Virus record (IMG/VR): IMGVR_UViG_3300009103_000004
Span: 62,001-126,000 of that record
Reading direction: 5' to 3' (one strand)
Length of the DNA stretch: 64,000 nt
Source of the DNA: a virus
A program made the translations under genes and the position numbers. The notes below the pieces were generated by a model. It was not told the DNA's origin and did no database searches. It saw only the letters and a list, made by a program, of their open reading frames with translations. Positions 1-47,891 of the stretch are shown here, in pieces; the first letter of the stretch is position 1; each line of letters begins with the position of its first letter.

Positions 1-797
1 GTTAAAACACCGGACTCGTCAGAACCAAGATCAGTAGCAGGGTCAAACTGCGCCTTAAGCAAAACCTCGTGTCTATCAAGATAATTTCTATTCTTGAGAT
101 TACCATGAAAGAAAGTATCGATCTTGTTTTCAGCGTAACCTATGTCGCCAGCAACCTTCGAATACCACTCATTTGACCAAGCTATAATGTCGTATATATG
201 CTGCAAGGAATATGATCTCTTGCTAAACCAATCACGCAATTCGTTAAAAGCAGCAGCATATATAAGAGTATCGCCACCACCCACAACTAGGTTAGTGTAT
301 AGCCCAAACCCGTCTGCAAATAAAGAAGAGGGGCAAGCCCACCCAAAACCCGTGGCAGGCGAGCATTGACCCATAGACGCCACAGTACTCTTCATTACCT
401 TAAAGGCATCATCATCATCGTAACGTTTTATAACTTCAAATACCTGAACCAGAGTGCTCTCTAACAAAGCTTCTATAATCTTATCGTACCAACCATCATT
501 TATAAAAATTATATCAGCATCAAGCCACGAGACATACTCGTACCCGCGAGATAAAACATCCCTTATGCCAATGTTAAGCAAAGCTTCCTTCTGCCACATC
601 AAATGCTGTGTCCTAAACGACAAACGGTTTGGGAGTTCATCTAGATGAAAATCAGCGTCATCAAAAGCCAGCTCAACAGTAGTGAGTTGTTCAGCGTAGT
701 CGCCAAGGCCTTCGTAAAACCTAAAGTAGTTATCCCTACGTCGTGAGTATCCGCACGGATTAAAGTAACAAGCAGTTAAGCCTAAATCAAAACTCAT
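1..797 (-). CDS. GT-A glycosyltransferase, partial (3' end beyond window)
   Basis: The frame is open from the ATG at 797 to the window edge with no stop, so the C-terminus is missing. About 265 residues are visible. A WLDADI motif at residues 91-96 is a DxD-type nucleotide-sugar/metal site. A GGGDT segment and an aromatic-rich N-terminus also fit a GT-A transferase. The start overlaps the stop of the next gene as ATGA, which supports this start and translational coupling. The family is not resolved. It is likely one of the transferases that build the operon's glycan. Confidence 0.8.
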   Translation of the reverse strand, partial: MSFDLGLTACYFNPCGYSRRRDNYFRFYEGLGDYAEQLTTVELAFDDADFHLDELPNRLSFRTQHLMWQKEALLNIGIRDVLSRGYEYVSWLDADIIFINDGWYDKIIEALLESTLVQVFEVIKRYDDDDAFKVMKSTVASMGQCSPATGFGWACPSSLFADGFGLYTNLVVGGGDTLIYAAAFNELRDWFSKRSYSLQHIYDIIAWSNEWYSKVAGDIGYAENKIDTFFHGNLKNRNYLDRHEVLLKAQFDPATDLGSDESGVL

Positions 798-1645
798 GAC
801 ACTATATCAAAATTATGTAAGGACTTGGCGCAATGTATAAATTCAGCAGCCTCAAACTCTGGATCATGAGAAGAATGTAAACGCTCAGACCCATGGTAGT
901 GACGCCTGGATTTTCCAAGATCAAAACCGTAAAGCGTTACTCCCCCGAAGACCCTGATGCCAAACGCAGCTGCAGCATACCCTATAGATGGCTTCTTGGT
1001 AGAATGTAAAGAGCTAAGACATGCACGAAAAGAAGGCTTAAGCACTAACATAGCTGAAGGGTCTCCGCCAGAATCTAAGTAACGAGCATACTCTAGTAAA
1101 GCTGCAGTTTCATTAGTCGTGCCTATAGCTATGTTTAAAACACCGAGTAGCTGGAAATCATCTCTGGTTATATCGCGCGTGTAGTCATAAATCCTACGTT
1201 CATTAAATAAATGTATGGTAGTCTTAGTGCCTATATCTTCAGAATGCTCTGTTATAAAAGGATGATTAAGCCTACACACCACTTTGTTGGAATCTATATG
1301 CTTACCGTACTTTGAGTTAAGCAAACAACTACCCCCACCGACTATGGTTATATGACCACCATAGATAGAAAAATTAGATATATCGGAAAGACTGGGAAGT
1401 TTATCAGAAAAAACCGAACATATGTATGGAGCTGAATTGGGATCAGGCCAATCTTCTTCTAGCCAGTGCGTAGGCATATTCTCGCGAAGTAAGTCGCTAC
1501 TATTGTCTGATATAACGCCACGCTCGAAATCAGTGAAAGCTTCTTTATACAGAACAACTGACGATAGGTCAGATGTTACTGGGATATGACTTAGTCTCTC
1601 AAGCGTTGGGAATTCAGGTATGTTAACTAGTAAGTCCTCATTCAT
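794..1645 (-). CDS. GT29-type sialyltransferase-like protein
   Basis: 283 residues, probably transferring sialic acid from CMP-sialate to a glycan end. The L-sialylmotif is visible at residues 101-127: VGGGSCLLNSKYG, then an ID pair, then VVCRLN. The S-motif is at 218-242 (PSIGYAAAAFG ... LYGFDL). HYH at 249-251 and the following H...E match motifs III and VS. GT29 enzymes are best known from eukaryotes, and bacterial sialyltransferases usually belong to other families. There is no signal peptide or membrane anchor, so it should act in the cytosol. It overlaps the CMP-sialate synthetase gene by 4 nt, which fits its donor. The acceptor cannot be read from sequence. Confidence 0.85.
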   Translation of the reverse strand: MNEDLLVNIPEFPTLERLSHIPVTSDLSSVVLYKEAFTDFERGVISDNSSDLLRENMPTHWLEEDWPDPNSAPYICSVFSDKLPSLSDISNFSIYGGHITIVGGGSCLLNSKYGKHIDSNKVVCRLNHPFITEHSEDIGTKTTIHLFNERRIYDYTRDITRDDFQLLGVLNIAIGTTNETAALLEYARYLDSGGDPSAMLVLKPSFRACLSSLHSTKKPSIGYAAAAFGIRVFGGVTLYGFDLGKSRRHYHGSERLHSSHDPEFEAAEFIHCAKSLHNFDIVS

Positions 1646-2331
1646 TTAGGAGAACTGAAGTAACCTGATTTCATTAGAAAGGTCAACTCTTCAAAGTCTG
1701 CTGGCTCGTCTATCTCAAAGCTACGTTGCCTAGGCATTACATAGAGTCCAACATTACCACTAGCTCTATCCTTAGACGCTTCAAGCAAGCCCTTGCTGGT
1801 TATATAAAAAGCGCCGTTTTCTCTATAGACCTCGGGCCTGTCTTGTCGCTGATGATGATACTGGTTTGATCGTATAGCGCCATGCTTGCCATATGACCAC
1901 ATGAACCCCCCGCACAACCACCCGCCACTGTCTAGACAAACAGAGACCACAGAATCGTATGGATTGTATTTTAAAACGTCCAAGCCACCCTCTATATCTT
2001 CAACAGAAGTAAGAGGTGCAGTACACTGTAAGAACACCAACGTTTCAAAATCTGGTACACATTCAGCAAAATGAAGTAATACCTCTTCACTGTTTGTATC
2101 ATCTCCAGATATGCAGTCAGGACGCCTTACTATCTTTGCACCAGACTCAACAGCAACCTCTTCTATATCACAACAATCCGTGCTAACCCACACGTCGTCA
2201 ACATTAGACTCCAGCGCAGTTTTTATAGAATAATCTATAAGGGGCCTACCGTTTAACAATTTAATGTTTTTACCGGGAATGCCCTTGCTGCCACCTCTAG
2301 CTGGAATTACGGCAATAGTTTTTCCACTCAT
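1642..2331 (-). CDS. neuA: CMP-sialic acid synthetase (N-acylneuraminate cytidylyltransferase)
   Basis: 229 residues, the usual length for a stand-alone NeuA catalytic domain. It activates a sialic acid with CTP to CMP-sialate. The nucleotide-binding signature PARGGSKGIPGKN lies near the N-terminus. It is followed by a STD segment, an RRPDCISGDDT-like region and a C-terminal IDEPADFE, the expected metal-binding IDxxxDF type. It lies 4 nt inside the sialyltransferase gene and close to the NeuB-like gene, so donor synthesis and transfer sit in one operon. A related 3-deoxy-nonulosonate such as legionaminate or pseudaminate is a possible alternative substrate. Confidence 0.88.
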   Translation of the reverse strand: MSGKTIAVIPARGGSKGIPGKNIKLLNGRPLIDYSIKTALESNVDDVWVSTDCCDIEEVAVESGAKIVRRPDCISGDDTNSEEVLLHFAECVPDFETLVFLQCTAPLTSVEDIEGGLDVLKYNPYDSVVSVCLDSGGWLCGGFMWSYGKHGAIRSNQYHHQRQDRPEVYRENGAFYITSKGLLEASKDRASGNVGLYVMPRQRSFEIDEPADFEELTFLMKSGYFSSPK

Positions 2332-2337
2332 TATTTA

Positions 2338-2595
2338 TTAACTACTAAACGAAGAATATATAGAAATCAAAGATAAAAGTAAGACAAAACAAAGTATAAC
2401 GTTAACAACTAAAGAACTACGTTGCGATGTATCCTGTGAGACACAGCATTTGTTAGCACCACATTTGGGGCTTGTGCATTCTCGAACTTCGTAAGAGTCA
2501 TAGAGTGCTTTGTTTATAATAGTGTTCATCTCGTAGTCGTACTCCTCAGGATCTACTCCGAGCTCATCGTGTAACTTTACTGGGTCGCTACTCAT
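2338..2595 (-). CDS. Small C-tail membrane protein
   Basis: I place the start at the ATG at 2595 (MSSDPVKLHDE...), giving 85 residues and an 8-nt overlap with the upstream gene. An in-frame codon at 2625 is less likely because the overlap would be 38 nt. The body is acidic and contains a Cys cluster (CTSPKCGANKCC). A hydrophobic segment of about 18 residues sits at the very C-terminus, as in a tail-anchored protein. No family is recognised. The Cys cluster may bind metal or form disulfides. Confidence 0.65.
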   Translation of the reverse strand: MSSDPVKLHDELGVDPEEYDYEMNTIINKALYDSYEVRECTSPKCGANKCCVSQDTSQRSSLVVNVILCFVLLLSLISIYSSFSS

Positions 2596-2812
2596 AACTA
2601 TACTCGTCATCGTAGTACCCATCACTTTTAGTAAGCCTGAGCAAAACCAAATCTTCTATAACATCACAACCTAGTTTTCTAAGAAGCTTAACACAGTCCA
2701 TGCGACTAAACTTCTTTTCAACCTCCTCAAGCTCAATGGCATCGTAACCACTGTTTAGCATAGTGCTAACATAATCGCGTAGTAACTCCATGTCTTCTTC
2801 TAAATCACTCAT
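2588..2812 (-). CDS. Small acidic protein, unknown
   Basis: 74 residues, acidic and predicted helical (MSDLEEDMELLRDYVSTML start). It ends in a Tyr/Asp/Glu-rich tail (GYYDDEYSYE). It overlaps the GT-B gene upstream by 8 nt and the tail-anchored gene downstream by 8 nt, consistent with an operon member. The product is not recognised. It could partner the adjacent small membrane protein. Confidence 0.65.
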   Translation of the reverse strand: MSDLEEDMELLRDYVSTMLNSGYDAIELEEVEKKFSRMDCVKLLRKLGCDVIEDLVLLRLTKSDGYYDDEYSYE

Positions 2813-3698
2813 AAAACGAATAGTATAGAGATTCTGTCCATTTCTTACTCATTGCTTCGGGCGAAAAGTATTTTTTAGCATACATCCACCTGTCAATTCT
2901 TTTTTCTTCAGGATCGTTATCTATTAAATCCATAATCTGAGATACAACATCGTCAACAGAAGAGCTAGGATCTACACTTTCCATCCAGGGCTCGTCAACG
3001 TCATAGTTCAAAGTCCAGCGACCCTGAGCTACAACGTCATAGTTTATTCTGCCGAAATCTCCCAATTCGCCAAAGCGCACCATGCCGTGTACCATTGGTA
3101 GTATCTGACTGATGTTGGCCTTACCCAAGGCAATAACGTGAGGGGCCTGAACCCACCCCGATTTATGGGGCAGCATAAACACCTTAACACCATACTCGCC
3201 AAGTTTTTTTATAACAGCTTGCGCCAATTTTTTATGAGGCTTGAGACAACCATTCCACGGGCTGGCATACCACAGTATGAATTTATTGAATGAAACAGGA
3301 GGACACACATCAGGTATGTCAACATGGTTTGCCCTATACATAACCTTTGGGTCCAATCCTACCTCCAGAAGCTTACTCCGAAATGTGTTGTTGTTAACCC
3401 AGTAATCCTTGAGCGGGTGCTTGATCATGTACTCACGTATATTCTTTTTTCTCAAAAGCTTCCTGTTACAACTACCCAAACCAAACAAGATAGACCTGTC
3501 CCTGTACTCTGGAACTATGTGAGTTATACACTGAGATAATATACCGTCAAAAGGCTCCTGTTCAGGAATCCTGATGTCCCACTCATGTTTCTTAAAATCA
3601 GATAAGTAAACAAACTCTATGTCGTCCTTAACTAGATCTCTGATCCTCTTAAGGCCGGATTCGGTGCCACTCTGCGCTATCCCAAGTATTTTTAACAT
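2805..3698 (-). CDS. Putative GT-B glycosyltransferase
   Basis: 297 residues. The protein looks like a short GT-B (GT4-like) transferase. A Rossmann-like N-terminal half is followed by a second half with a FILWYASPWNG strand, a 'KVFMLPHKSGW' strand and a 'YDVVAQGRWTLNY' region. The last resembles the donor-binding segment of GT-B enzymes. A C-terminal helix contains YAKKYFSPEAMSKKWTESL, a common ending in GT4 proteins. Donor and acceptor are unknown. It sits between sialate-synthesis genes, so a role in the same glycan is likely. Confidence 0.6.
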   Translation of the reverse strand: MLKILGIAQSGTESGLKRIRDLVKDDIEFVYLSDFKKHEWDIRIPEQEPFDGILSQCITHIVPEYRDRSILFGLGSCNRKLLRKKNIREYMIKHPLKDYWVNNNTFRSKLLEVGLDPKVMYRANHVDIPDVCPPVSFNKFILWYASPWNGCLKPHKKLAQAVIKKLGEYGVKVFMLPHKSGWVQAPHVIALGKANISQILPMVHGMVRFGELGDFGRINYDVVAQGRWTLNYDVDEPWMESVDPSSSVDDVVSQIMDLIDNDPEEKRIDRWMYAKKYFSPEAMSKKWTESLYYSFYE

Positions 3699-3712
3699 TG
3701 GGGGTAAGTGAC

Positions 3713-4549
3713 TTATCTAAGCGATGTAATTTTAGATAACTCGCTGGGTGTTACAATTTTATCAGAACTACCAAGGGCCTTTTCCATATCTCGTATACCT
3801 CGAACCAGCTTAAACATAGCATGTGGCTCAAGCGAACACAGCTGATCACTACCCCACATAGTTCTGTCTAGAGTAACGTGACGCTCTATTATTTCTGCAC
3901 CAAGAGCAACTGACGCTATAGTTGGGGTCAAGGCAAACTCATGACCACTGTAACCTATCTTGCATTTTGGGAATCGAGCGCCAAGCGTGGGCATACAACG
4001 TAAGTTTAATTCTTCTAATGGGGCTGGGTAAGATGAGTTACAGTGCAAGATTGCAACTTTAGTACTCTTATCTGTTTTAGTAATCCAACTGTAAGCATCC
4101 TCAACATTAGACATGTCACTCATACCAGTGGACATAATAACTGAATCAAAAGATTCAGAGCATGCACGGACCAAAGACTCGTTAACTATAGATGCTGAAG
4201 CAAGCTTCACCCAAGGAAGATTAAATTCTTGTAAGAACTCAACAGAATCCAAATCCCATGGAGACGCAGACCAAGCAATGTTGTTTGTACTGCAGTGCTC
4301 GTCTATTTCCTTATACTGATCCAAATCAAATTCAACACGATGCTTGTAAGCCAAATAAGTAGTCTTGCCCCATGGCGTATCCCGAACCTTCTCTTTCATA
4401 TGTTCTGGAACGCAAACATCAGGATTACGTTTTTGAAACTTAACTGAGTCAAAACCAGCAGCAGCTGCAATAGTTATAAGGCGCTTAGCTACATCAAGGT
4501 CGCCATTATGATTAATACCGATCTCGGCTATTGTATATACTTTACTCAT
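3713..4549 (-). CDS. neuB: Sialic acid synthase, NeuB-like, lacking the antifreeze-like domain
   Basis: The start is set at the ATG at 4549 (MSKVYTIAEIGINHNGD), overlapping the HAD gene by 8 nt. The product has 278 residues. The TIM-barrel motifs are present: GINHNG, SVKFQKR, KLASASI, CNSSYP at 170-175, KIGYSGHE and AEIIERHVTLDR. They cover the PEP-, Mn- and sugar-binding residues of N-acetylneuraminate synthase. Typical NeuB is about 340-350 residues with a C-terminal SAF/antifreeze-like domain that contributes an active-site Arg. Here the protein stops right after the barrel. It could use ManNAc, ManNAc-6-phosphate or a related hexose. The neighbouring HAD phosphatase makes a 9-phosphate route plausible. 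Confidence 0.88.
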   Translation of the reverse strand: MSKVYTIAEIGINHNGDLDVAKRLITIAAAAGFDSVKFQKRNPDVCVPEHMKEKVRDTPWGKTTYLAYKHRVEFDLDQYKEIDEHCSTNNIAWSASPWDLDSVEFLQEFNLPWVKLASASIVNESLVRACSESFDSVIMSTGMSDMSNVEDAYSWITKTDKSTKVAILHCNSSYPAPLEELNLRCMPTLGARFPKCKIGYSGHEFALTPTIASVALGAEIIERHVTLDRTMWGSDQLCSLEPHAMFKLVRGIRDMEKALGSSDKIVTPSELSKITSLR

Positions 4550-4916
4550 CTTTAAAGAAATCTTCAGAATATACACCGCGATCATCCACATAACAGTCAG
4601 CGCCGAACTTTACGCCTAGCCGAAGCTCGTGGTACTTCAGCCCCCATTCCTTTAACTGTTTCTTGGTCATCTCGGTCCACTCTTCAAGCTTTTCGGGATA
4701 ACTGGTTGCTCGTGCGGTATCTATGTATATGTAATGCCCAGATTCGTAGAGACGATTTACTAAAGCTATACGCTCCTTGTGAGGCTTAGCATCTCTATAA
4801 GTCTCCCCAACACTGGAGTATACACCATGATTCTTTGGATCTACTTGTGTACACAATGTACCATCCAAATCAAAACAAATGGAAGGCGCGGAATCTTTTT
4901 TTACTCTTTCACTCAT
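4542..4916 (-). CDS. HAD-family phosphatase (possible sialate-9-phosphate phosphatase)
   Basis: 124 residues, a minimal cap-less HAD protein. Motif I is ICFDLDGTL (nucleophile Asp16, Asp18), motif II is the YIDTAR strand and motif IV is CYVDDRG. It overlaps the NeuB-like gene by 8 nt and the GT7 gene by 1 nt. If the synthase makes a 9-phosphate product, this enzyme would dephosphorylate it before CMP activation. That step is inferred from context only. Nucleotide or sugar-phosphate phosphatase activity is also possible. Confidence 0.75.
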   Translation of the reverse strand: MSERVKKDSAPSICFDLDGTLCTQVDPKNHGVYSSVGETYRDAKPHKERIALVNRLYESGHYIYIDTARATSYPEKLEEWTEMTKKQLKEWGLKYHELRLGVKFGADCYVDDRGVYSEDFFKDE

Positions 4917-18124: not shown

Positions 18125-19141
18125 CTAAAAATTACGAAGCTTGGTCATAACTTGTTTTATAGCCATCCACATGTCTAAATACTTATAAGTAGCCAGCCGC
18201 CCCAGGAACAACACATTGTTCTGTGATTGAGCTATCTTCTTGTACTTGCTATATATGTACCGGCCCTCACCGAAGTTCATTGGGTATATGGCGAGGTTCT
18301 TTCCAGGTATATGTTGTTGGGGATAGTCCCTGGTTATCACTGTTTCTGGACCTTGCTCGTTCAAGTATACGCTATTGTCTGAAGTACGATTGTACGGAGC
18401 GTCTCCACATTCATTCAATATAGCACCCTTATCCCAGTTAAACTCTGCCTCATCCTTGGTGACGACAGTGTGCTCGAACCTAAGGGATCTGTACGGAAGG
18501 TGACCATGAGCGTGGTCGCAATAATCATCCACCTTGCCTGTGTATATGAGTTTGTCACAACTGTACATGCCATCCATCCACCGCTTCCATTCGTCGGGGC
18601 CAACGCCAAGATTAACCTCAATACCGGACAACATGTTGTTCATCATATCAGTATACCCACGAACAGGTATGCCTTGGTGCTTATCTGTAAAATATCTATC
18701 GTCCCAATCGTCGCGCTTGCCAGGGACACGGTTGGTTATGGAGCTGGGGAGGTCACACCAAGGTACGCCCCAGTGGCGCTCCGAGTACTTGGTGAAAACA
18801 AGATCCCTTATTTCTTCAGGAGTGAGTGATCTGCCGAGCTGCTCTTCAGTCTTCTTATTGTAGGGTATACTGATCCTCCCTAGATCAGTGTTGGCCTCTA
18901 CACGATGCGTATATCCGTTAAACGAAGTATACCTATTTACAAACTCCCAGACCTCATCGTCATTCGTGTGGAATATATGCGGGCCGTATTGGTGTACGGT
19001 TACATTGTTAAGCAAGCCATCAAAACAGTTGCCCCCGATATGACGCCTAGTGTCAAATACCTCTACAGAGTGTCCCTTGTCCCGCAAAAGTATTGCAGAG
19101 ACAATCCCGGATAGTCCGCAACCAACAATGTTGATTTTCAT
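18125..19141 (-). CDS. glf: UDP-galactopyranose mutase
   Basis: 338 residues. It interconverts UDP-Galp and UDP-Galf and so supplies galactofuranose. The FAD motif GCGLSG starts at residue 7. It is followed by RRHIGGNCFD, HQYGPHIFHT, a WGVPWCDLP stretch, RVPGKRDDWDDRYF and late LAIYPMNFGEG/VLFLGRLATYKYLDM blocks, all characteristic of bacterial Glf. The length is slightly shorter than the usual 360-390. Its presence implies that one of the nearby transferases uses UDP-Galf. Confidence 0.93.
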   Translation of the reverse strand: MKINIVGCGLSGIVSAILLRDKGHSVEVFDTRRHIGGNCFDGLLNNVTVHQYGPHIFHTNDDEVWEFVNRYTSFNGYTHRVEANTDLGRISIPYNKKTEEQLGRSLTPEEIRDLVFTKYSERHWGVPWCDLPSSITNRVPGKRDDWDDRYFTDKHQGIPVRGYTDMMNNMLSGIEVNLGVGPDEWKRWMDGMYSCDKLIYTGKVDDYCDHAHGHLPYRSLRFEHTVVTKDEAEFNWDKGAILNECGDAPYNRTSDNSVYLNEQGPETVITRDYPQQHIPGKNLAIYPMNFGEGRYIYSKYKKIAQSQNNVLFLGRLATYKYLDMWMAIKQVMTKLRNF

Positions 19142-19932
19142 CCAGACTTACTACTAAACGGCAACTCATTTAGCAAGTCTTTAGGGCCATATATAACTGG
19201 TGATTGTTTCAACTTACTGCGTTTCCTGACCCTACCCGAGAAGGCCCTGAAGAGTTCAGCCCAAGAACTGTTTCTATACTTGGGAGTGCGTATGTAGTTA
19301 AGGAATACGGCGGTCATCAAACCTTGCCTGCGCCTGCGGTACACAACCTCATATGCCACGCCACCAGAGTTGCAAGCAGCCAGCAAAATGTGACGCTGAG
19401 TTTCAGGATCCTTCTGCTTCCTGCCTAGCTTGCGTACGGCAACACCATCGCCTAGCTCACTTATCTTGTCACGTATAGGCTCGGGGTGAAAATCCGTTTT
19501 GTTATCCTCATCAGTCATGGTGCCGCTATGGCATGCATCTATTATAAGCGTAACCCCAACACCTCTGTTGTGACCCCACAAGCATTGCTTTATATCATCA
19601 TCAGTAAGCGCATCATCCCAATCGTGGTCATAAGTTATAAGGCATTCGTCTAAAAAGTCCGCCTCGTCATCGTCCTTATCAGGTACTTGACCGCCGTGAC
19701 CACTAAAGTAGAACAGTACATGGTCGCCACTAGTTGAAGTGTTTATAAGAGTTTTAAGTGCAATCAGTATATTTAACTTTGTAGCTTTTTCATTAAGTAG
19801 CATTTGTATGTCGTTAAACTTGAACCTGTTAGAACATACACGAGCTACCTTAGACGCATCATTCATACAGCCTCTAAGGTTTTTTCTTGAATCCGCATAT
19901 CTGTTTATACCAACTATTAGTGCTCTATTCAT
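19138..19932 (-). CDS. Metacaspase (caspase-like C14 peptidase)
   Basis: 264 residues forming a single p20-like domain. The catalytic His79 is in VLFYFSGHGGQ and Cys134 is in IIDACHSG. The first strand is ALIVGINRY and an acidic DDDEADFLDECL loop follows the His. No death or prodomain is present. Metacaspases cleave after Arg or Lys. The acidic S1 environment seen here fits that, but the target is unknown. It overlaps glf by 4 nt inside a glycan operon. Roles could be host-death control, maturation of a viral protein or defence. Confidence 0.88.
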   Translation of the reverse strand: MNRALIVGINRYADSRKNLRGCMNDASKVARVCSNRFKFNDIQMLLNEKATKLNILIALKTLINTSTSGDHVLFYFSGHGGQVPDKDDDEADFLDECLITYDHDWDDALTDDDIKQCLWGHNRGVGVTLIIDACHSGTMTDEDNKTDFHPEPIRDKISELGDGVAVRKLGRKQKDPETQRHILLAACNSGGVAYEVVYRRRRQGLMTAVFLNYIRTPKYRNSSWAELFRAFSGRVRKRSKLKQSPVIYGPKDLLNELPFSSKSG

Positions 19933-34642: not shown

Positions 34643-35050
34643 TTAATCGTAATAATTCCAAGTTATCTCACAACCTTCGTCATCTTGTAACTCAGGTTCG
34701 GTTATATACAAGCTGCTGCCACTCAATATATCCTTAGCACCTACACGAATTGTTATCAGAGCCTCAATGTCAACTTCGTTTCCAAGAATGGACCACAAAT
34801 CCCAGTCATGAATCCTGAACTCATCAGGCCAATTAGGGCAGTCGTACCATAGTTCTTGTTTATTTATTACGCCGGTAACGTGTCGTAGCTTGCATTCATC
34901 ATGCTCTGTAGCATGACCTACTGTAAGTGACGAGAATCCGTGCTTTTCCAATTCATCAATGAATTTAAAAAATTCATCTCCATACTTTTGTCTAGATGGG
35001 TGAGCACCACCCAAGTCCAGGACTTGTTGATAACTATTATCTTTTTCCAT
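34643..35050 (-). CDS. Unknown protein
   Basis: 135 residues. It opens MEKDNSYQQVLDLGGAHPSR and is acidic, with a HATEHDECKLRHVTG strand, WDLWSILGNEVDIEALITIRVG and a terminal EGCEITWNYYD. No known domain. Its upstream region is the pentanucleotide array, so it may be regulated from there. Confidence 0.7.
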   Translation of the reverse strand: MEKDNSYQQVLDLGGAHPSRQKYGDEFFKFIDELEKHGFSSLTVGHATEHDECKLRHVTGVINKQELWYDCPNWPDEFRIHDWDLWSILGNEVDIEALITIRVGAKDILSGSSLYITEPELQDDEGCEITWNYYD

Positions 35051-36075
35051 AACTTCAAAACATAAACATAACAGAGCTTATACGAGCGTAACGTAACCCC
35101 CGTAACTTATCCCAAACAATCACATACGTAACTTGCCAAATCAGACAAGACACATCGCTACAAATCTCAAAACAACCCATCTTAGCTAAACCCACCAGAT
35201 CAGACAGAACATACCATATCATATTTTAACTCAGCTTAACGAGACACAACTCGACTAAAGCCATACCAATTGCTCAACATATCTGACCTAAAGCAACCCA
35301 GCTCATCCAAACGGAGCAAATCGAAGCTCGCCGGAACCCAACTCATCTTAACCTATCTGACATACCAGAACTGATACCATCTCATAACAGCGAAACTCAT
35401 CATAACAGAGCTGACTCAACAAAGCGGAACAAGTCTCATCATAGCGAAACTCAACAAAACAGAGCGGAACAGCCAAATCTTACCAGAACAAAGCGAAGCT
35501 TACCCCAGCTGAACTTATACTATCTTAACCCAGCTAATCAAATCAGCCACATTGGAGCGGAACTTATCCCATCTGAACCAGAAGCAACTTGACTCATCGT
35601 ATCTGCCGCAACTGATCGCAAAGCACCGCAACATAGCACACTAGAGCATATAATACCAGATCACATCTGCCGAAGCGAAACATAACTGAACATATCTTAA
35701 GCCAACAGGGCTCAACGAAACATATCTGACTTAACAGAACGTAGCCCAACTAAACACAGCAAAAGACTACTTAACATGTAACGCCATATCTGACTTAACA
35801 CAACTCGGGGCAACTCAGCACGTAGCATACCTACCGAACTTACGAGAACTTATCTGACTTAACGGAACGTATCTATACAAATCTCAGCCCATCCCATCTT
35901 AACTTATCTGACATAACAGAGCTGAACAAACCTGGCCGGAACCAAACCCATATCAACTCAGCTCGACAAAGGGGCATCGAATCTGACTTAACAGAGCATA
36001 GCTTATACGAACGTAGCAAAACGAATCCCAGCTAGACGAATCTGCCATAGCAAAACGGAATCATTGGCTACAACA
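35051..36075. repeat. 1 kb non-coding array with 5-nt periodicity (NNANC)
   Basis: This stretch has no ORF of note. It can be divided almost throughout into 5-base words with A at position 3 and C at position 5, for example TTAAC, AGAAC, GTAGC, CCAAC, TAAAC, ACAGC, GAATC and TAGAC. Occasional 4- or 6-base slips occur, for about 200 units in all. The minus strand therefore reads GNTNN. The longer phrase ATCTGACTTAAC recurs at 35724, 35788, 35852 and 35981. A period of five excludes coding origin. It could be a protein-binding, partition, packaging or ring-protein RNA-wrapping site. Confidence 0.85.
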
Positions 36076-36078
36076 AAT

Positions 36079-36108
36079 GGGTGGCCAGGGTAGGAGCCTG
36101 ACCACCCA
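36079..36108 (-). terminator. Hairpin terminator after the basic-tail protein gene
   Basis: GGGTGG-CCAGG pairs with CCTG-ACCACCC around a GTAGGAG loop, 25 nt after the stop of the gene at 36133-36993. The U-tract is weak (TTTG), so termination may be partial. Confidence 0.55.
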
Positions 36109-36132: not shown

Positions 36133-36993
36133 CTAGCCGGCAATTTCGAACTGACCCCAGCTTCCTACTGCTTTGGGGCTACTGGGCCTCCACTCACCAA
36201 TTCCATTATGGAATCCGGCAAGCTGGATAAGGTTAATGATAGCCTGACCGCTTATTATGTTCGGGCTATACTGAACCAGTATCTCTGTGGACCAGTCGTG
36301 TATTACCGGGCGGTAGCGCAGGTCTTTATCTTTGCCTACGCCCAAGCTAACCGGATCTTGGCGCATTGATACGCCTAGTGAGTGCAGGTGTTTCATTTCC
36401 TTCACTCTCTCGGGTGTCACCCATCTGGACTTGGGCTCTTCATCGAGCTCATCGGTGAACCGATAGTCCATTTTGGTCTTGAGGTTCTCTGGCAGGTGGC
36501 CGTGCTGGCTAGTCAGTGGCAGCATCTGATTATCACGCTTATCCGTACCAAATATGAAGAACCATGAACGCGAAGCTATCATAGTCAGATTTGGGTCGTT
36601 AACGTGACGACAAGCATCCACTGTGGCCTTTTTGACCTGAATGGCAGTTGCGCATAAGTGCGTTGGCTTGCCCTTCTTGTCGAACAGCCAGTAACCTGCA
36701 TCCTTCATTTCCTGGAACTGATCCTTGGGTGGGCGATCTTTTCCCTGAACCTTCAACCCGTCATGCTTCTTTTCTAGATCAAGTCGGGTCTTGTTGGTTA
36801 CGGTGTGACAACCGTAGATGTTAGCTCCCATTGATTTCAGGGTGAGTGTAAACTCCTCAACCTTCCGTTCCGGGATGTATATGTCTAGAGCTGTACTCTC
36901 TGGTGGAGTGCTCTTTTTACTTACTGATCCGGTTCCTACTTTTTTAGCTGCTGCCTTTTTGGCAGGAGCTTTCTTTTTAGCTGTTGTAGCCAT
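36133..36993 (-). CDS. Protein with histone H1-like basic tail, phage type
   Basis: 286 residues. The first 30 are Lys/Ala/Pro-rich (ATTAKKKAPAKKAAAKK), like a histone H1 or nucleoid-protein tail. The body has a MIASRSWFFIFGTD strand and a C-terminus IHDWSTEILVQYSPNIISG followed by GIGEWRPSSPKAVGSWGQFEI. That is a pattern I associate with small proteins in many phages. A clear AAGGAG site precedes the ATG. It probably binds DNA or a nucleic-acid complex. It lies directly next to the 5-nt array. Confidence 0.72.
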   Translation of the reverse strand: MATTAKKKAPAKKAAAKKVGTGSVSKKSTPPESTALDIYIPERKVEEFTLTLKSMGANIYGCHTVTNKTRLDLEKKHDGLKVQGKDRPPKDQFQEMKDAGYWLFDKKGKPTHLCATAIQVKKATVDACRHVNDPNLTMIASRSWFFIFGTDKRDNQMLPLTSQHGHLPENLKTKMDYRFTDELDEEPKSRWVTPERVKEMKHLHSLGVSMRQDPVSLGVGKDKDLRYRPVIHDWSTEILVQYSPNIISGQAIINLIQLAGFHNGIGEWRPSSPKAVGSWGQFEIAG

Positions 36994-37018: not shown

Positions 37019-37669
37019 TTATCCTGTTCTTACTTTATTGATCTGCTTGCGCACTTCAGCAGGCTTTATCTCTAGGCGCTTTGCCAAAGATATAACCAAA
37101 GGCTCAAGCTGATCGAGTTCTTCAATGAGTTCGGTAAATCCATTGAACTTACCGAATGCTCCCATTAAATATCTATACATTTCATACGTGACCGTTGACT
37201 TATGGTCCTCATTAAGAAGCACTGAATCGATTGTCCTGTAGGCCTTTCTGGCATCCTTTGATTTGGTACTGTGAAGAAACCTAACCACGGATACCTTCCT
37301 ACTCTCACCACCGGTACTACGAATGTTGACACGAACTACCTTAGCCTTGATAGAACGTATTACATACCGTGCCTCATCCTGACGGCGCTTATGTGCAGCA
37401 TCTGCGTCATCCCAAGTAAAGTAGGAATGCATGGCAGACTTTTTCTTACTAGCTGCAGTTATAACATCATCAGGCAAGATCGAGCCGAGCTTGTTGGCCA
37501 AGGCTTGGAGCTCAAGTCCAACCTTCTCAACGTCTGCGTCCCTAATGGAACTCCCTTCAGCTTTTACAAACCCTACTACTTCGATATCCTCTGTGGTGTC
37601 CAACGAACCCACATCAACTACTTCAGCCTCTACGGCTTTTGCCTTTATGGCTCTCTTAGTTTTAGTCAT
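37019..37669 (-). CDS. Unknown phage-type protein
   Basis: 216 residues. A Lys/Ala/Glu-rich N-terminus (MTKTKRAIKAKAVEAEVVD) is followed by SAMHSYFTWDDADAAHKRRQDEARYVIRS, a pattern seen in small conserved phage proteins. The C-terminus is helical with LEIKPAEVRKQINKVRTG. A hairpin plus T-run lies in its leader (37674-37708), so expression may be attenuated. It is 25 nt upstream of the histone-tail gene and probably co-transcribed with it. Confidence 0.72.
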   Translation of the reverse strand: MTKTKRAIKAKAVEAEVVDVGSLDTTEDIEVVGFVKAEGSSIRDADVEKVGLELQALANKLGSILPDDVITAASKKKSAMHSYFTWDDADAAHKRRQDEARYVIRSIKAKVVRVNIRSTGGESRKVSVVRFLHSTKSKDARKAYRTIDSVLLNEDHKSTVTYEMYRYLMGAFGKFNGFTELIEELDQLEPLVISLAKRLEIKPAEVRKQINKVRTG

Positions 37670-43571: not shown

Positions 43572-44183
43572 CTATTCATATCCCTTAAAATCTGCAGGAG
43601 ATAGTTTTCTTACAAGTTCCTTACCAGTAACCTTGTCCAAGTAAGTAACATTTGGAAAGCTTCCGGGTCCGAATGCATTGGATGATGTGGGTGTATGGCC
43701 CTCATCAACTAGCTTCAAAAAAGTTTTTCTAGCAGGGCCTTCGACATAAGTATTCGCAAAATCCTTCTGCCATTCGCCAAAATGCTTTCTACTCATAACG
43801 CCGGTCGCAACATTACCATATGACTTACCAAGCATTGGACCGCGCATTGCTGCTTTGGGGTCTTTTAAGTAGTCATCATAGGTGCTAAAAAATTTTCTCA
43901 TCCCACTAGGATTAAGTCTCTTAGCCTCGTTATACCAAGGGTTAACAGGCTGTTCTTTGCTAACATTCCCTAGAGAGAGCGGTTTCTTTGGCATTTGCCC
44001 AACCTTAGGAACAGATCTCCTAACATTAGGAACAGGTCTTACAATAGCAGAAGATTCTGGATGTTTAAATGATTTTGGTATTGGAGGAGGAGCTACAGCT
44101 CGTGGCTTTAACTTGGGGCGTACCTTGGGCTTTATTCTGGGAACAGCTTCCTTAACCAGCCAATACTTTTCCTTGTTGGTCAT
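43572..44183 (-). CDS. Tagged basic Pro-rich protein (cassette member 1)
   Basis: I set the start at the ATG at 44183 (MTNKEKYWLVKEA) that forms TGATG with the previous stop. 203 residues. After the tag comes VPRIKPKVRPKLKPRA (basic Pro-rich module). Further Pro-rich sequence leads into a folded C-terminal half (GKSYGNVATGVMSRKHFG ... PNVTYLDKVTGKELV). It ends near a natural stop with no terminator. Probably a structural or packaged protein. The tag is the best evidence for membership. Confidence 0.8.
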   Translation of the reverse strand: MTNKEKYWLVKEAVPRIKPKVRPKLKPRAVAPPPIPKSFKHPESSAIVRPVPNVRRSVPKVGQMPKKPLSLGNVSKEQPVNPWYNEAKRLNPSGMRKFFSTYDDYLKDPKAAMRGPMLGKSYGNVATGVMSRKHFGEWQKDFANTYVEGPARKTFLKLVDEGHTPTSSNAFGPGSFPNVTYLDKVTGKELVRKLSPADFKGYE

Positions 44184-44608
44184 CAACCACCTGTGTAATG
44201 CGGAAATTGATTTCCAAGAAGTTTCTTTAGTTTCTCACTCTGAGCAGATGAGTCTAAAGTTCCCCAAGACCCAGTACCATATCTTTTATTGTAGCTATCT
44301 ATTGCAGAACGACCAGCAGCGTTGGCTCTATCCTGCTGCCACTTAGCTCTCCCGGTAAGTGGAGGAGGAGCGGGAGCTGGGATCGACACGTTTACTGGAG
44401 GAACTGGAGGAGGAGATCCAACTGGTGGTTTTTTAGAAACATTACCGGGATTGTGTGGTACAGTTGGCTTAACTACCTTTCCCTTGGCGGGTGGTGCTAT
44501 TTGAGCTCCACTGGCAGAATCAAATGTCCCATACGAATCAGAGTATGATCCAGACGTTGAGTTAGACTCAGCTAACTTTACTAAAAAATATTTCTCTTTA
44601 TTGTTCAT
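44183..44608 (-). CDS. Tagged protein (cassette member 2)
   Basis: 141 residues. The tag MNNKEKYFLVKLA is followed by a Ser/Gly-rich stretch, then a Pro/Ala/Lys-rich part (PPAKGKVVKPTVPH and a PPPVPPVN run) and a folded-looking end (WQQDRANAAGRSAIDSY). There is no recognised domain. It shares only the tag and low-complexity character with its neighbours. Confidence 0.78.
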   Translation of the reverse strand: MNNKEKYFLVKLAESNSTSGSYSDSYGTFDSASGAQIAPPAKGKVVKPTVPHNPGNVSKKPPVGSPPPVPPVNVSIPAPAPPPLTGRAKWQQDRANAAGRSAIDSYNKRYGTGSWGTLDSSAQSEKLKKLLGNQFPHYTGG

Positions 44609-44618
44609 AGTTATTTGT

Positions 44619-44927
44619 TCATTTCAGACCGCCAGAAGCAGCTAATATCCCGGCCAAGGCAGCAGGTATCATAGCAGCTTGGTAGGGGTTCATTTGAAAT
44701 GGGTTTACGTATTCCCACCAGTTATCTCGTTTTCGCGTAGTAAAGAATCCATCTTCTCCCCGTTGTCTGATGTCTCTAACTTCCTTCTTATATTCTGACA
44801 TTGGCTCGCAATACGTACCATCTTCCTTTTCAACACACCAACGTTCAGGAACTTCTCTCTTGGGATCTGGTTCCTGAATCCCAAAAAAAGCTTCCTTAAC
44901 CAGCCAATATTTCTCTTTGTTGTTCAT
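44619..44927 (-). CDS. Tagged protein (cassette member 3)
   Basis: 102 residues: tag MNNKEKYWLVKEA, then acidic PKREVPERWCVEKEDGTYCEP, then RQRGEDGFFTTRKRDNWW. It ends in a hydrophobic segment (MIPAALAGILAASGGLK) that may be a membrane helix. No Pro-rich module. It lies 10 nt from the previous gene. Confidence 0.78.
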   Translation of the reverse strand: MNNKEKYWLVKEAFFGIQEPDPKREVPERWCVEKEDGTYCEPMSEYKKEVRDIRQRGEDGFFTTRKRDNWWEYVNPFQMNPYQAAMIPAALAGILAASGGLK

Positions 44928-44929
44928 GG

Positions 44930-45271
44930 TTACTCCTTTCCTTCCTCAGAATTAAGATATTCTAAATTAGCTATATCCTGTTCTGTAAGTTCTTCGCCTC
45001 TCTTTTTCTTAGCCTCTAGGTCTTTCTTTTGTTTTTTTGCTCTTCCGCCTAAAGGTCCCGTAGTATGAAGGGGAGCATAAGCACCTATTGACGCGCCAGG
45101 CATAAAAAGAGACATTAAAGTAGCGTAAGCCCGAACCTTATCCTTATTAAAAGGCTTGGCATTAGGTCCACGCATTCTAGCTACCAAGCCGGGGTGTTTG
45201 ATGCCACGCTCTTCCCAGGATTTATATTCCTTTGCAGTTTTGAATAGAAAATATTTCTCTTTGTTACTCAT
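44930..45271 (-). CDS. Tagged protein (cassette member 4)
   Basis: 113 residues. Tag MSNKEKYFLFKTA. Then a Gly/Arg/Lys-rich body with KPFNKDKVRAYATLMSLFM and GAYAPLHTTGPLGG, ending KKQKKDLEAKKKRGEEL and an acidic tail. It may bind nucleic acid. No known domain. Confidence 0.78.
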   Translation of the reverse strand: MSNKEKYFLFKTAKEYKSWEERGIKHPGLVARMRGPNAKPFNKDKVRAYATLMSLFMPGASIGAYAPLHTTGPLGGRAKKQKKDLEAKKKRGEELTEQDIANLEYLNSEEGKE

Positions 45272-45274
45272 CAG

Positions 45275-45820
45275 TTACATTATAGACGCTCGAAAAGCTT
45301 TCAACTTCTCGTTCGCAGTTTGCTCTCGTATCCATTCAAGATTCTTTCTCCGATGCTCTATATACTCTCTTCTCTCTTCTTCAGTAGGTGGCTCGTGTCC
45401 ACGTCGTGCCCTCCAGTCATCAAGATCCTTGGTTTCAGAAATATTCTTTTCGTAAACCTCCAACAATCTACCCAAATCCTTCCTATCAAAACTAGGTGCG
45501 CCTACCCTTCCTTCCAAGAAATCATCTGGCGAATTATGAGTACCCTCAATCATACGATCCTCTAAAAGACGATTGACCAATTCTTTGTCGGTCTCCCCCC
45601 AAAACTTATACCAAGGCCGATCTTCCCCATGCATCATCTCATGCACCAAAGGACCTTCAGTCCCCTTATCCCCCAGCCATCCTGTTACGTTATACTTGTC
45701 AGCAGCATCTCCACCCTCAGTTAATCGAATGTCATCAGGAGTGAGCTCTCTATCGTATCCGGCAATACCCAAGCCCATACCAGCTAACTTAACCAAATAA
45801 TATTTCTCTTTGTTATTCAT
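45275..45820 (-). CDS. Tagged putative zinc metallopeptidase (cassette member 5)
   Basis: 181 residues. After the tag MNNKEKYYLVKLA comes GPLVHEMMHGEDRPWYKFW, where H60-E61-x-x-H64 is the HExxH zinc-protease motif. A C-terminal helix (REYIEHRRKNLEWIREQ) follows. The third zinc ligand is not evident (Glu or Asp downstream is possible). It is the only enzyme motif in the cassette, so it may process tagged proteins during assembly or act in the host. That is inference. Confidence 0.75.
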   Translation of the reverse strand: MNNKEKYYLVKLAGMGLGIAGYDRELTPDDIRLTEGGDAADKYNVTGWLGDKGTEGPLVHEMMHGEDRPWYKFWGETDKELVNRLLEDRMIEGTHNSPDDFLEGRVGAPSFDRKDLGRLLEVYEKNISETKDLDDWRARRGHEPPTEEERREYIEHRRKNLEWIREQTANEKLKAFRASIM

Positions 45821-46007
45821 TTTCTATTTTAATTAAAAAACAACCTATGTTCTTACTTAGCTGTGTAACTCGTTCCAGAGCTTCTTCTTTTTTCTTACCC
45901 CGCATTTTTTTAGCTTCCTCATAAAGGTCCAGTATAAAGTCATTAGTTATCTTATGTTTAACCACGCCAACTACTTTATCTTCCTTACTCAAGGTGACTG
46001 ATTCCAT
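45813..46007 (-). CDS. Small untagged protein inside the cassette
   Basis: 64 residues, MESVTLSKEDKVVGVVKH start, helical and Lys/Glu-rich, ending IGCFLIKIENE. It lacks the tag that nearly all its neighbours carry and overlaps the tagged genes on both sides by 1-8 nt. It could be a chaperone or scaffold for them. Function unknown. Confidence 0.65.
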   Translation of the reverse strand: MESVTLSKEDKVVGVVKHKITNDFILDLYEEAKKMRGKKKEEALERVTQLSKNIGCFLIKIENE

Positions 46008-46735
46008 TAAGGGTTATACTTACTAGAGGTACTAGGAGAATATATATCCCTAAGCGCACCAGACATAGGACCCTCTTCAGCCCAGCCTCGTTGGAACTCA
46101 AGGTCGTCAAGGTCGTCATAAACAGAACCAGGTCTTTTATTGCTCCTAGCCCAGGGAGGTGCGTCGTCGGATATGCCAGTCGGACGTTTACCACTTAGAG
46201 ACCTCTGATAATCTGCCCATCCTGGAGACATAGCAGTCGGTATGGGGTCGCCGGGCTTCCAGAGAGGTGGAGGGTCTTTGGGGAATACGGGTTTTTTGGG
46301 AGTCCGCTTAGTCTTAGGAGCACCAGTTATAGGACTAGTTCCTTTACTTCCTCCTGAAGGAGGACTTTTCCAAGTCGCCTGTGGGGTTCCAAATCTTTTA
46401 AGTTCCGTTTCATTCGGAAACCATTTTCTCATAAATAGCTCTCTTTGTTGTTCGAGAGGCGAATTTCCGCGTAATTCTCTATCGAGAGACTTCGGCTTAG
46501 CTGTCACCTCTTTTTGTTTACCAGTTATAGGACTAGTTCCTTTACTTCCTCCTGAAGGATTTGTAACGGCTGCTGTTTGCTTGCCTGATGGTGGCTTGGA
46601 CTTAATAGGAAATACGTCTGTGTCCCTTGGGACTTGTATCGGCTTAGCTAAAACCTTGCTAGGCTTGGGCCTAACCTTAGGTCTAATCTTAGGTATAGCG
46701 TACTTAACCAAATAATATTTCTCTTTGTTGTTCAT
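46007..46735 (-). CDS. Tagged basic Pro-rich protein (cassette member 6)
   Basis: 242 residues. Tag MNNKEKYYLVKYA and module IPKIRPKVRPKPSKVLAKP, then the AVTNPSGGSKGTSPITG block. PPSGGSKGTSPITG is repeated later in the protein, an internal duplication. The C-terminus is Pro/Asp/Arg-rich with no folded domain. It is an extended, disordered protein and a probable structural or packaged component. Confidence 0.78.
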   Translation of the reverse strand: MNNKEKYYLVKYAIPKIRPKVRPKPSKVLAKPIQVPRDTDVFPIKSKPPSGKQTAAVTNPSGGSKGTSPITGKQKEVTAKPKSLDRELRGNSPLEQQRELFMRKWFPNETELKRFGTPQATWKSPPSGGSKGTSPITGAPKTKRTPKKPVFPKDPPPLWKPGDPIPTAMSPGWADYQRSLSGKRPTGISDDAPPWARSNKRPGSVYDDLDDLEFQRGWAEEGPMSGALRDIYSPSTSSKYNP

Positions 46736-47349
46736 TTCCTTGGGGTCATGTTATAGCCTGTTATTTCTTCTTTGTTAGTGGTAAGATTCGTGTTAATTGG
46801 AGTCCCAGTTGCGTAAGTTCTCGTAGGAGCATTTCCAGTCATGGCAAAAGAACCTAACGCTTGTTGCCAAGGACTCTGCGCAGTACCTGGTTGGTTTGTA
46901 GTAATCTGATCCTTAGTTATATTGCCGTTCTGCATCACTGTCTCAGCACTAACATGTTCCCCGAACTGCTTGGCTTGATTGTTCATGCCTGGTGTAGGAT
47001 TAGCAGATATTCTATCTCCCATAGTGTTCATGTCTGAGCCATATAAAGAAGTGGTAGCTTTGTTTTGCGCCCAAGTCTTGGCTCCTTGTGGTGCAAAACT
47101 ATTCCACATGGTGCCCGCCATACCTACCAGTGGCTGGGCAACCGTATTGAACATAGCGCCAGCTTGCTGTCCAGCTTGCCCAGCTTGCTGTAATACGTTA
47201 GTTGGTTTTTCACTCATTACTCCTGCGGGAGGTCCTGAGAAAGCTGCACCTATCGAGCCTGCAGGATGTTTGAAAAAGTCTCCTACAGAATAGTTCTGTT
47301 GGTTGGCTAACTTAGTTAAATATAATTTTTCTTTGTTGTTCATATTCAT
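46732..47349 (-). CDS. Tagged protein (cassette member 7)
   Basis: 205 residues. The start is MNMNNKEKLYLTKLA with an ATGA overlap on the previous gene. The body is Gly/Ala/Gln-rich with PAGSIGAAFSGPPAGVM and GQAGQQAGAMFN, and a QALGSFAMTGNAPTRTYATG end. The tag is slightly divergent (LYLTKL). It looks disordered. No enzymatic motif. Confidence 0.75.
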   Translation of the reverse strand: MNMNNKEKLYLTKLANQQNYSVGDFFKHPAGSIGAAFSGPPAGVMSEKPTNVLQQAGQAGQQAGAMFNTVAQPLVGMAGTMWNSFAPQGAKTWAQNKATTSLYGSDMNTMGDRISANPTPGMNNQAKQFGEHVSAETVMQNGNITKDQITTNQPGTAQSPWQQALGSFAMTGNAPTRTYATGTPINTNLTTNKEEITGYNMTPRK

Positions 47350-47891
47350 CGAGTACTGTTTTGATCCAAAGCACGAGAGTTAGGAAATGATCTAGAATCC
47401 AGTTGACTTCCTACTACACCGCCAGCACCCATAGCAGCAGGAACAGCAAGAACAGAAGCGGGGATGCCGCCCTTTTGAGCTGCCTGTCCTGACAAACCTC
47501 CGCCAGATGGGTTAAACTTTAGCTCATCAACTACAGAACGAGGTATTACAGGAGCAGTTGTATCCATTTTCTTAGGTGCCTGCAGTTTAGGTCTGGGGGT
47601 TGAAGGCGAAGCTGCTGGCGGAGCTGCTGCTGGAGCTGGCCTCTTAGGCATGGGCATAACGTTTGGTGTCTCTCCCTTTGAAGGATTTGTAGCAGCTCCT
47701 GGTCTCCTACCACTAGAACGAAGATGTTCAAACGAATCTTTGTTCTCACGTACGCGTTTAAGATAATGCTCTAAATGAAGATCTCTATGACCAAAGCGTG
47801 GGTCAGCCTTAGGCCTTGGGCGAGGATTTGGCCTAACCTTTAACCTAGGAACAGCTTCCTTAACTAAAAAATATTTCTCCTTATTATTCAT
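47346..47891 (-). CDS. Tagged basic Pro-rich protein (cassette member 8)
   Basis: 181 residues. Tag MNNKEKYFLVKEA, module VPRLKVRPNPRPRPKADP, and the GAATNPSKGETPN block, then an Ala/Pro-rich stretch (APAAAPPAASPSTP) and a hydrophobic ASVLAVPAAMGAGGVVG region. Its end overlaps member 7 by 4 nt, so the cassette is translated as one block. Likely a structural or packaged role. Confidence 0.78.
   Translation of the reverse strand: MNNKEKYFLVKEAVPRLKVRPNPRPRPKADPRFGHRDLHLEHYLKRVRENKDSFEHLRSSGRRPGAATNPSKGETPNVMPMPKRPAPAAAPPAASPSTPRPKLQAPKKMDTTAPVIPRSVVDELKFNPSGGGLSGQAAQKGGIPASVLAVPAAMGAGGVVGSQLDSRSFPNSRALDQNSTR

What the first reader, a model, noticed from the sequence alone, without database searches (positions are those of the whole stretch)
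35051..36075. A 1 kb array with pentanucleotide period (NNANC) in a gene-free interval
Seen: the stretch divides into about 200 five-base words, nearly always with A at position 3 and C at position 5 (TTAAC, AGAGC, GAATC, CCAGC). The longer phrase ATCTGACTTAAC recurs at 35724, 35788, 35852 and 35981. The pattern fits neither codons nor CRISPR nor ordinary tandem repeats, since the words vary freely. Known: TRAP binds RNA triplets spaced at about 5 nt. Inference: a partition, packaging or replication site, or an RNA wrapped by a ring protein.
Basis: partly seen in the sequence, partly recalled or inferred. Interest (0 to 1): 0.9.

Follow-up and report, generated by a model that had tools for sequence, protein, structure and literature searches.

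The report
A phage's 15-unit gapped-guide RNA array
The strange 1-kb stretch is a cassette of about 15 guide-RNA units of the recently described VIPR kind (a CRISPR-like tool used by viruses), and three of its guides spell out, with every third base skipped, conserved parts of bacterial gene families, two of them DNA methyltransferases.

Summary
In detail: lag-5 identity is 0.44 against 0.28 in dinucleotide shuffles (z 11), and it is unique in the 167-kb phage record. The array is non-coding. Read on the other strand (sense with its neighbours) it is GNUNN words in 15 units of 50-78 nt. Units are separated by a 4-nt word, G[GT]C[AT], that shifts the register. A motif scan of viral contigs found dozens of similar arrays. 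49 of 66 such loci carry one protein family within 522 bp, against 0 of 61 comparison loci. The window's own 36133-36993(-) belongs to it. That family is Vipr (PDB 36pp; Cas7/Csm3-like fold), so this is a VIPR locus (preprint PMC13142463): vap - vipr - vrRNA array. Decoding the free NN letters with VIPR's one-base skip gives TGGFPCQAFSV (C5 DNA methyltransferase motif), KNGGEFYTP (HsdM) and VMKVFVYGTL (gamma-glutamyl cyclotransferase). These gapped codes match 19, 41 and 1 database sequences exactly, all with the skipped base at the codon wobble position. A 2-base-skip control gave none. New relative to the preprint's main text: the triplet is G-[U/A/C]-U rather than GGY, units abut without tails, and guides sit on conserved motifs of restriction-modification genes. 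No expression or binding was tested.

The parts
37019..37669 (-). Candidate vap (VIPR accessory protein), 216 aa, PHROG 15946
   Evidence: Same family as the small gene next to Vipr/arrays in other loci (clusters 1 and 3; PHROG 15946; alignment). AlphaFold model pLDDT 78, no fold match in the PDB.
36133..36993 (-). vipr gene: 286-aa RAMP/Cas7-like protein with a Lys/Ala-rich N-terminal extension
   Evidence: Member of the array-adjacent family (HMM E=1.1e-38). Family profile hits PDB 36pp_D 'SUSP1 Vipr protein' E=1.6e-40; single-sequence hit E=1.7e-5. Model pLDDT 83.7 matches Csm3 chains, E 9e-6, prob 1.0.
36078..36108 (-). 12-bp hairpin followed by TTTGTTG, terminator-like, between the vipr stop codon and the array
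   Evidence: Consensus scan only.
35051..36075 (-). vrRNA array: about 15 units of GNUNN words (triplet middle base U 36%, A 32%, C 25%, G 7%)
   Evidence: Autocorrelation, parse, triplet composition.
35988..36042 (-). Unit 1 (NN = TC TA GG TC TT AC CG AA AT CT)
   Evidence: Parse; target unknown.
35859..35908 (-). Unit 3: NN AA AA GG GG GA TT TA AC CC = codons for [NK][NK]GG[DE][FL]YTP; target hsdM-type N6 adenine methyltransferases
   Evidence: 41 exact 1-nt-skip matches in viral contigs, 41/41 in codon phase; Pfam N6_Mtase/HsdM_N on three of them; 2-nt-skip control 0 matches.
35731..35790 (-). Unit 5: codes for [IM]V[IM][NK]V[FL]VYGTL; target gamma-glutamyl cyclotransferase (AIG2-like) gene
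   Evidence: One exact match, L175, residues VMKVFVYGTL near the start of a GGACT protein.
35672..35726 (-). Unit 6 (NN = AT TC GA CT GG AA AT CA AT TC TC)
   Evidence: Parse; target unknown.
35608..35667 (-). Unit 7 (NN = GT CT AT AT CT GT AT GC GC GC CA GC)
   Evidence: Parse; no exact match in viral contigs.
35549..35603 (-). Unit 8: reverse complement codes for TGG[FL]P[CW][HQ]A[FL]SV; target C5-cytosine DNA methyltransferase motif IV
   Evidence: 5 exact matches in viral contigs and 14 in bacterial genomes, 19/19 translating to TGGFPCQAFSV; PF00145 in all five tested.
35475..35544 (-). Unit 9: codes for [FL]YG[NK][SR][NK][HQ]GKS[FL]L[NK][FL], a P-loop-like (GxxxxGKS) reading
   Evidence: Parse; no exact match in viral contigs, so only a suggestion.
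36043..36046 (-). First of the 15 boundary words G[GT]C[AT]; the others have their first sense base at 35987, 35912, 35858, 35794, 35730, 35671, 35607, 35548, 35474, 35415, 35361, 35287, 35205, 35146
   Evidence: the same 4-nt word GGCA marks units in other loci and in Brocalys and Cy-LDV1.

Best explanation
A VIPR locus of a tailed phage. The - strand is transcribed (inferred) into RNA made of GNU-NN pentamers. Vipr, a single-domain RAMP protein, polymerises along it, one subunit per pentamer, gripping the fixed GNU letters and presenting the NN pairs (inferred from the described VIPR mechanism and the Cas7-like model). Each ~11-pentamer unit, delimited by a 4-nt G[GT]C[AT] word, is one guide. 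It pairs with double-stranded DNA through its NN letters with one target base skipped per step (rule from PMC13142463; supported here by target decoding), so the skipped base falls on codon wobble positions. Bound complexes repress the target gene (shown for other VIPRs, inferred here). At least three units address gene families: C5 DNA methyltransferases, type I restriction methyltransferases (hsdM) and gamma-glutamyl cyclotransferases. Each sits on a stretch so conserved that one guide can fit diverged homologues. The likely role is silencing restriction-modification and other genes of the host, its mobile elements or rival phages.
For: Protein: the array-adjacent family is Vipr by sequence (36pp_D) and Csm3/Cas7-like by fold. 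Association: 49 of 66 other array loci have Vipr within 522 bp, 0 of 61 comparison loci of similar total length. Array: pentamers with fixed triplet and free NN, units of 9-14 words, as described for vrRNAs (9-16 repeats). Accessory gene: same family as in other array loci and in the Vipr-bearing Cy-LDV1. Code: exact 1-nt-skip matches for three units with 18-22 fixed bases, 61/61 in the predicted codon phase and, where tested, all in the predicted family; same code with 2-nt skip 0 hits; the full C5 and HsdM motifs are absent from 40 word-shuffled sets. No self-targets: the record lacks all three gene families. Triplet type clusters on the Vipr tree (16 changes against 27 in shuffles), as expected if Vipr reads the triplet.
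Against: No transcription, binding or repression data. The triplet here is GHU, with GGU only 7%, while the preprint's worked examples use GGY (it mentions 'a related consensus' in supplements I could not read). Five units were scanned; two gave no exact match, and the rest remain undecoded. The decoded units were noticed as familiar motifs before the scans, so they were not chosen blind. Because the motifs are universal, the hits do not reveal the actual target organism. No distinct 3' tail was found between units. 17 array loci had no Vipr in the DNA fetched (some are contig ends, others perhaps other kinds).
Confidence: 0.93

Rival explanations
1. It is a Vipr-bound guide array, but the methyltransferase and GGCT readings are coincidences or reflect different true targets; the guides address unidentified rival phages, as in the SUSP1 and P. 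fulva systems.
For: 12 of 15 units have no identified target; units 7 and 9 had no exact match; motif resemblance was spotted by eye.
Against: For a 22-base gapped code the chance expectation is well below one, yet 5 viral and 14 genomic exact matches occur, all C5 methyltransferases where tested. For unit 3, 41 against 0 with a 2-nt skip. Three unrelated units all fall in coding phase.
Confidence: 0.1
2. A long RNA that binds many copies of Vipr as a sponge or structural scaffold, without guiding: the NN letters are simply unconstrained.
For: Free NN letters and a very long array are also what unconstrained spacers would give; TRAP-RNA binding has such spacers (own knowledge).
Against: NN letters spell gapped gene sequences; a related RNP was shown to be a programmable DNA binder (PMC13142463).
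Confidence: 0.03
3. DNA element (partition, packaging or replication site) bound by a protein with a half-turn repeat.
For: Intergenic, repetitive, once per record.
Against: Mean period about 4.9, not 5.25; strand-asymmetric triplet; adjacency to a Cas7-like protein; decodable letters; varied position and orientation across viruses.
Confidence: 0.01

Closest known systems
VIPR systems (Viral Interference Programmable Repeat; Escherichia phage SUSP1 and Pseudomonas fulva prophage type II, PMC13142463)
   Same: Vipr RAMP gene, small accessory gene, adjacent tandem pentamer array with fixed triplet and hypervariable NN, units of 9-16 words, 1-nt skip with skipped base at codon wobble.
   Different: Triplet G[U/A/C]U instead of GGY; 15 units head to tail with a 4-nt boundary word and no visible tail; Vipr has a 40-aa Lys/Ala-rich N-terminal extension and is a long branch; three decoded targets are enzyme genes (two DNA methyltransferases), not satellite or lysogeny-switch genes.
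VIPR-like loci of Mycobacterium phage Brocalys (gp45) and Cyanophage Cy-LDV1 (g33/g34), annotated as hypothetical proteins
   Same: Vipr homologue beside pentamer arrays; unit boundary word GGCA; Cy-LDV1 shares the accessory gene family.
   Different: Triplet GGC; only a few units.
Type III CRISPR Csm3 / Cas7 backbone subunits
   Same: Predicted RRM-type fold (best PDB matches); coats a guide RNA with fixed register.
   Different: 5-nt rather than 6-nt register; one gene, no Cas10/Csm4/Csm5, no CRISPR repeats; pairing through 2 of 5 nt.
TRAP (tryptophan RNA-binding attenuation protein) sites
   Same: Fixed triplets spaced 2-3 nt apart in RNA.
   Different: No TRAP homologue seen beside the array; triplet GNU not (G/U)AG; about 170 or more repeats; spacer letters carry information.

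Membership tests
VIPR | Vipr (ancestral RAMP) gene next to the array | tested here: met
   36133-36993(-), profile to 36pp_D E=1.6e-40, single sequence 1.7e-5, Csm3-like model
VIPR | Accessory (vap) gene in a minimal two-gene locus | tested here: inconclusive
VIPR | Tandem pentamers: conserved triplet plus hypervariable NN, 9-16 per unit | tested here: met
   15 units of about 9-14 words
VIPR | Triplet GGY, or a related consensus | tested here: inconclusive
   GGY not met: GNU with G in the middle in only 7%. Related GUU, GCU and mixed triplets occur across the family.
VIPR | Invariable structured 3' tail after the repeat tract (described for type II; architectures vary between types) | tested here: inconclusive
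   No tail visible between units, which abut through a 4-nt word. The preprint reports staggered overlapping arrays and variable architectures, so the tail does not define all types.
VIPR | NN letters read DNA with a 1-nt skip | tested here: met
   Computationally only: exact gapped matches for three units, codon phase 61/61, 2-nt-skip control 0
VIPR | vrRNA expressed and bound by Vipr; represses target | not testable with these tools
   Needs sRNA-seq, pull-down and reporter assay
CRISPR-Cas array | Identical repeats with spacers, adjacent cas operon | tested here: not met
   No long identical repeats (one search lists no tandem array there); no effector operon around it
Simple tandem repeat / protein-coding repeat | Recurring unit sequence or open frame | tested here: not met
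   Tandem Repeats Finder finds nothing there; stops in all frames
TRAP-binding RNA | (G/U)AG triplets and a TRAP gene | tested here: not met
   Triplet is GNU; adjacent protein is Vipr

The most novel reading that the evidence does not exclude
VIPR guides can work at the level of protein motifs. By skipping wobble bases and sitting on a conserved motif, a single guide silences a whole enzyme family across species. This phage carries such 'family-wide' guides against restriction-modification methyltransferases, that is, an RNA-guided counter-defence or rival-suppression arsenal, read by a Vipr that has shifted from GGY to G[U/A/C]U triplets.
Probability: 0.45. Interest if true: 0.85.

Novelty: new variant of a known kind. 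Interest (0 to 1): 0.74.

Why it matters
VIPR was described only in 2026, with GGY-type systems of a few phages as worked examples. This locus is an independent check of its gapped code in a distant Vipr with a different triplet: the letters decode into recognisable gene sequence. It suggests what large phage arrays aim at (DNA methyltransferases, a GGCT-like enzyme), and shows that one guide can exactly fit dozens of homologues with a median of 35% protein identity. A 15-guide natural set and a wide range of triplet types (GGU, GGC, GUU, GCU, mixed) make the protein-triplet recognition rule directly testable.

Tried and rejected
Tandem repeat, coding repeat, CRISPR, TRAP and DNA-site readings were rejected. 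A cross-search of the collected guides against the loci in hand showed no excess over shuffled guides for any skip length once low-complexity guides were removed, as expected for 1.2 Mb of unrelated DNA. Exact 1-nt-skip searches for units 7 and 9 found nothing. Rfam has no convincing match there. The accessory protein has no sequence or fold match in the PDB. L112, L074, L032 and L078 were dropped as coding repeats (lag-15 dominance). One script failed on a motif syntax error and was rerun; another failed on a file name and was rerun.

Full report
1. The observation. The stretch 35051-36075 really has a five-base period. Lag-5, -10 and -15 identities are 0.44, 0.42 and 0.40 against 0.28 in dinucleotide-preserving shuffles. 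A sliding scan gives sharp edges (35051-36076) and no second instance in the rest of the 167-kb virus record. It is non-coding in all frames and holds no conventional tandem repeat. The period drifts because single bases are lost at regular points.

2. Anatomy. All genes close to the array lie on the - strand. Reading that strand: a 216-aa gene (37669-37019), a 286-aa gene (36993-36133), a terminator-like hairpin (36108-36078), the array, then a 135-aa gene starting at 35050. In this sense the words are GNTNN. The middle base is U 36%, A 32%, C 25%, G 7%. A four-base word G[GT]C[AT], followed by GNT, recurs 15 times at 54-82 nt, 12 of 14 spacings being 4 modulo 5.

3. Related arrays and their partner. 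A scan of viral contigs with nine ANCNN words returned at least 120 stretches. After dropping coding repeats, 81 arrays in 67 loci remained, window included. They show the same build: free NN letters, a fixed triplet (GGU, GUU, GCU or mixed) and, in many, recurring unit boundaries. Most array-adjacent gene pairs run in the GNTNN direction (37 against 12). Clustering of all neighbouring genes gave one dominant family, present in 50 loci and mostly abutting the array. The window's 286-aa protein is in it. With a profile, 49 of 66 array loci (window excluded) have a member within 522 bp, against 0 of 61 loci fetched for other reasons. The profile was built from members of this family, so the first number is partly by construction; the zero is not. 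A second recurring family includes the window's 216-aa protein.

4. Identification. The family profile finds PDB 36pp, 'SUSP1 Vipr protein' (E=1.6e-40); the window protein alone does so at 1.7e-5. Its AlphaFold model (pLDDT 83.7) best matches Csm3 chains of type III CRISPR complexes (E 9e-6). The preprint PMC13142463 describes VIPR: a viral RAMP protein, an accessory gene and RNAs of 9-16 GGY/NN pentamers. These RNAs recognise double-stranded DNA through the NN letters with one skipped target base per step, the skip usually falling on codon wobble positions. Arrays vary and include staggered, overlapping RNAs; natural targets were satellites and prophages.

5. Decoding. I read each unit's NN letters as first and second codon bases, on both strands. 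Unit 8, reverse complement: TGG[FL]P[CW][HQ]A[FL]SV, the catalytic motif of C5 DNA methyltransferases. Unit 3: [NK][NK]GG[DE][FL]YTP, a hallmark of HsdM-type methyltransferases. Unit 5: [IM]V[IM][NK]V[FL]VYGTL, the start of gamma-glutamyl cyclotransferases. These were noticed by eye, so I tested them as exact gapped DNA patterns. Unit 8 (22 fixed bases): 5 viral contigs and 14 bacterial genomes. Unit 3 (18 fixed bases): 41 viral contigs. Unit 5 (20 fixed bases used): one contig. All 61 hits lie in the predicted codon phase, and the ambiguous letters resolve to the motif residues. Nine encoded proteins tested with Pfam were all of the expected family. The unit 3 code with a 2-base skip has no hit at all. 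The full C5 and HsdM motifs never appear in 40 word-shuffled versions of all arrays. The 41 HsdM targets share a median of 35% protein identity, and their skipped bases vary, with 36 distinct 26-mers. The phage record itself encodes none of the three families. Units 7 and 9 gave no exact match.

6. What is new. The triplet is G[U/A/C]U. On a tree of 48 Vipr proteins the triplet type is clustered (16 changes against 27 in shuffles), and the window protein is a long branch nearest to a GUU-type relative. This fits, but does not prove, that Vipr reads the triplet. The boundary word GGCA is shared widely: 48 of 161 four-base register shifts in all arrays are exactly GGCA. It also marks units in the GGC-type arrays beside the Vipr genes of Mycobacterium phage Brocalys and Cyanophage Cy-LDV1. 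It may be a processing or register signal (inference).

7. Mechanism and limits. Shown here: the period, the units, the Vipr neighbour, and gapped matches to gene families. Taken from the preprint: RNP formation, the one-base skip, repression. Inferred: transcription of the - strand, one guide per unit, and silencing of methyltransferase genes in hosts, their mobile elements or rival phages. The hits name gene families, not the actual target organism. No tail was recognised between units, so RNA ends are unknown. The VIPR type could not be assigned without the preprint's supplements.

Noticed in passing
window 794-4591 (-): A run that looks like a sialic-acid kit: NeuB synthase (3713-4591), CMP-sugar cytidylyltransferase (1642-2331) and a GT29 sialyltransferase (794-1645) (Pfam). 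GT29 is best known from eukaryotes (own knowledge).
   Followed up: partly
window 19138-19932 (-): Caspase-domain (Peptidase_C14) protein encoded by the phage (E=5.9e-31), next to a UDP-galactopyranose mutase (18125-19141).
   Followed up: partly
window 794-33832: A region of roughly 30 kb dense with glycosyltransferases, methyltransferases and several Sulfotransfer_2-like proteins, suggesting heavy surface decoration.
   Followed up: no
window 43572-47891 and L002 9270-10037, L008 507-893: About eight different proteins share the N-terminus M(N/T)NKEKYxLVKxA, perhaps a sorting or packaging tag on virion proteins.
   Followed up: no
window 35362-35470 (-): Units 10 and 11 share most of their first words (GCTCTGTTnTGnTGAGTTTCGCTnT...), like two guides against variants of one target.
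   Followed up: no
L011 12326-12601, L047 12226-12526, L085 11901-12201, L127 10076-10376: Four closely similar loci with short NNAAC-type arrays but no Vipr found; the flanking proteins (314 and about 351 aa) are conserved. Possibly orphan guides or another use of such arrays.
   Followed up: no
L190 2590-2830 (Mycobacterium phage Brocalys), L191 3230-3420 and 4010-4190 (Cyanophage Cy-LDV1): GGCNN arrays of a few units, bounded by GGCA, lie unannotated beside Vipr genes called hypothetical proteins.
   Followed up: partly
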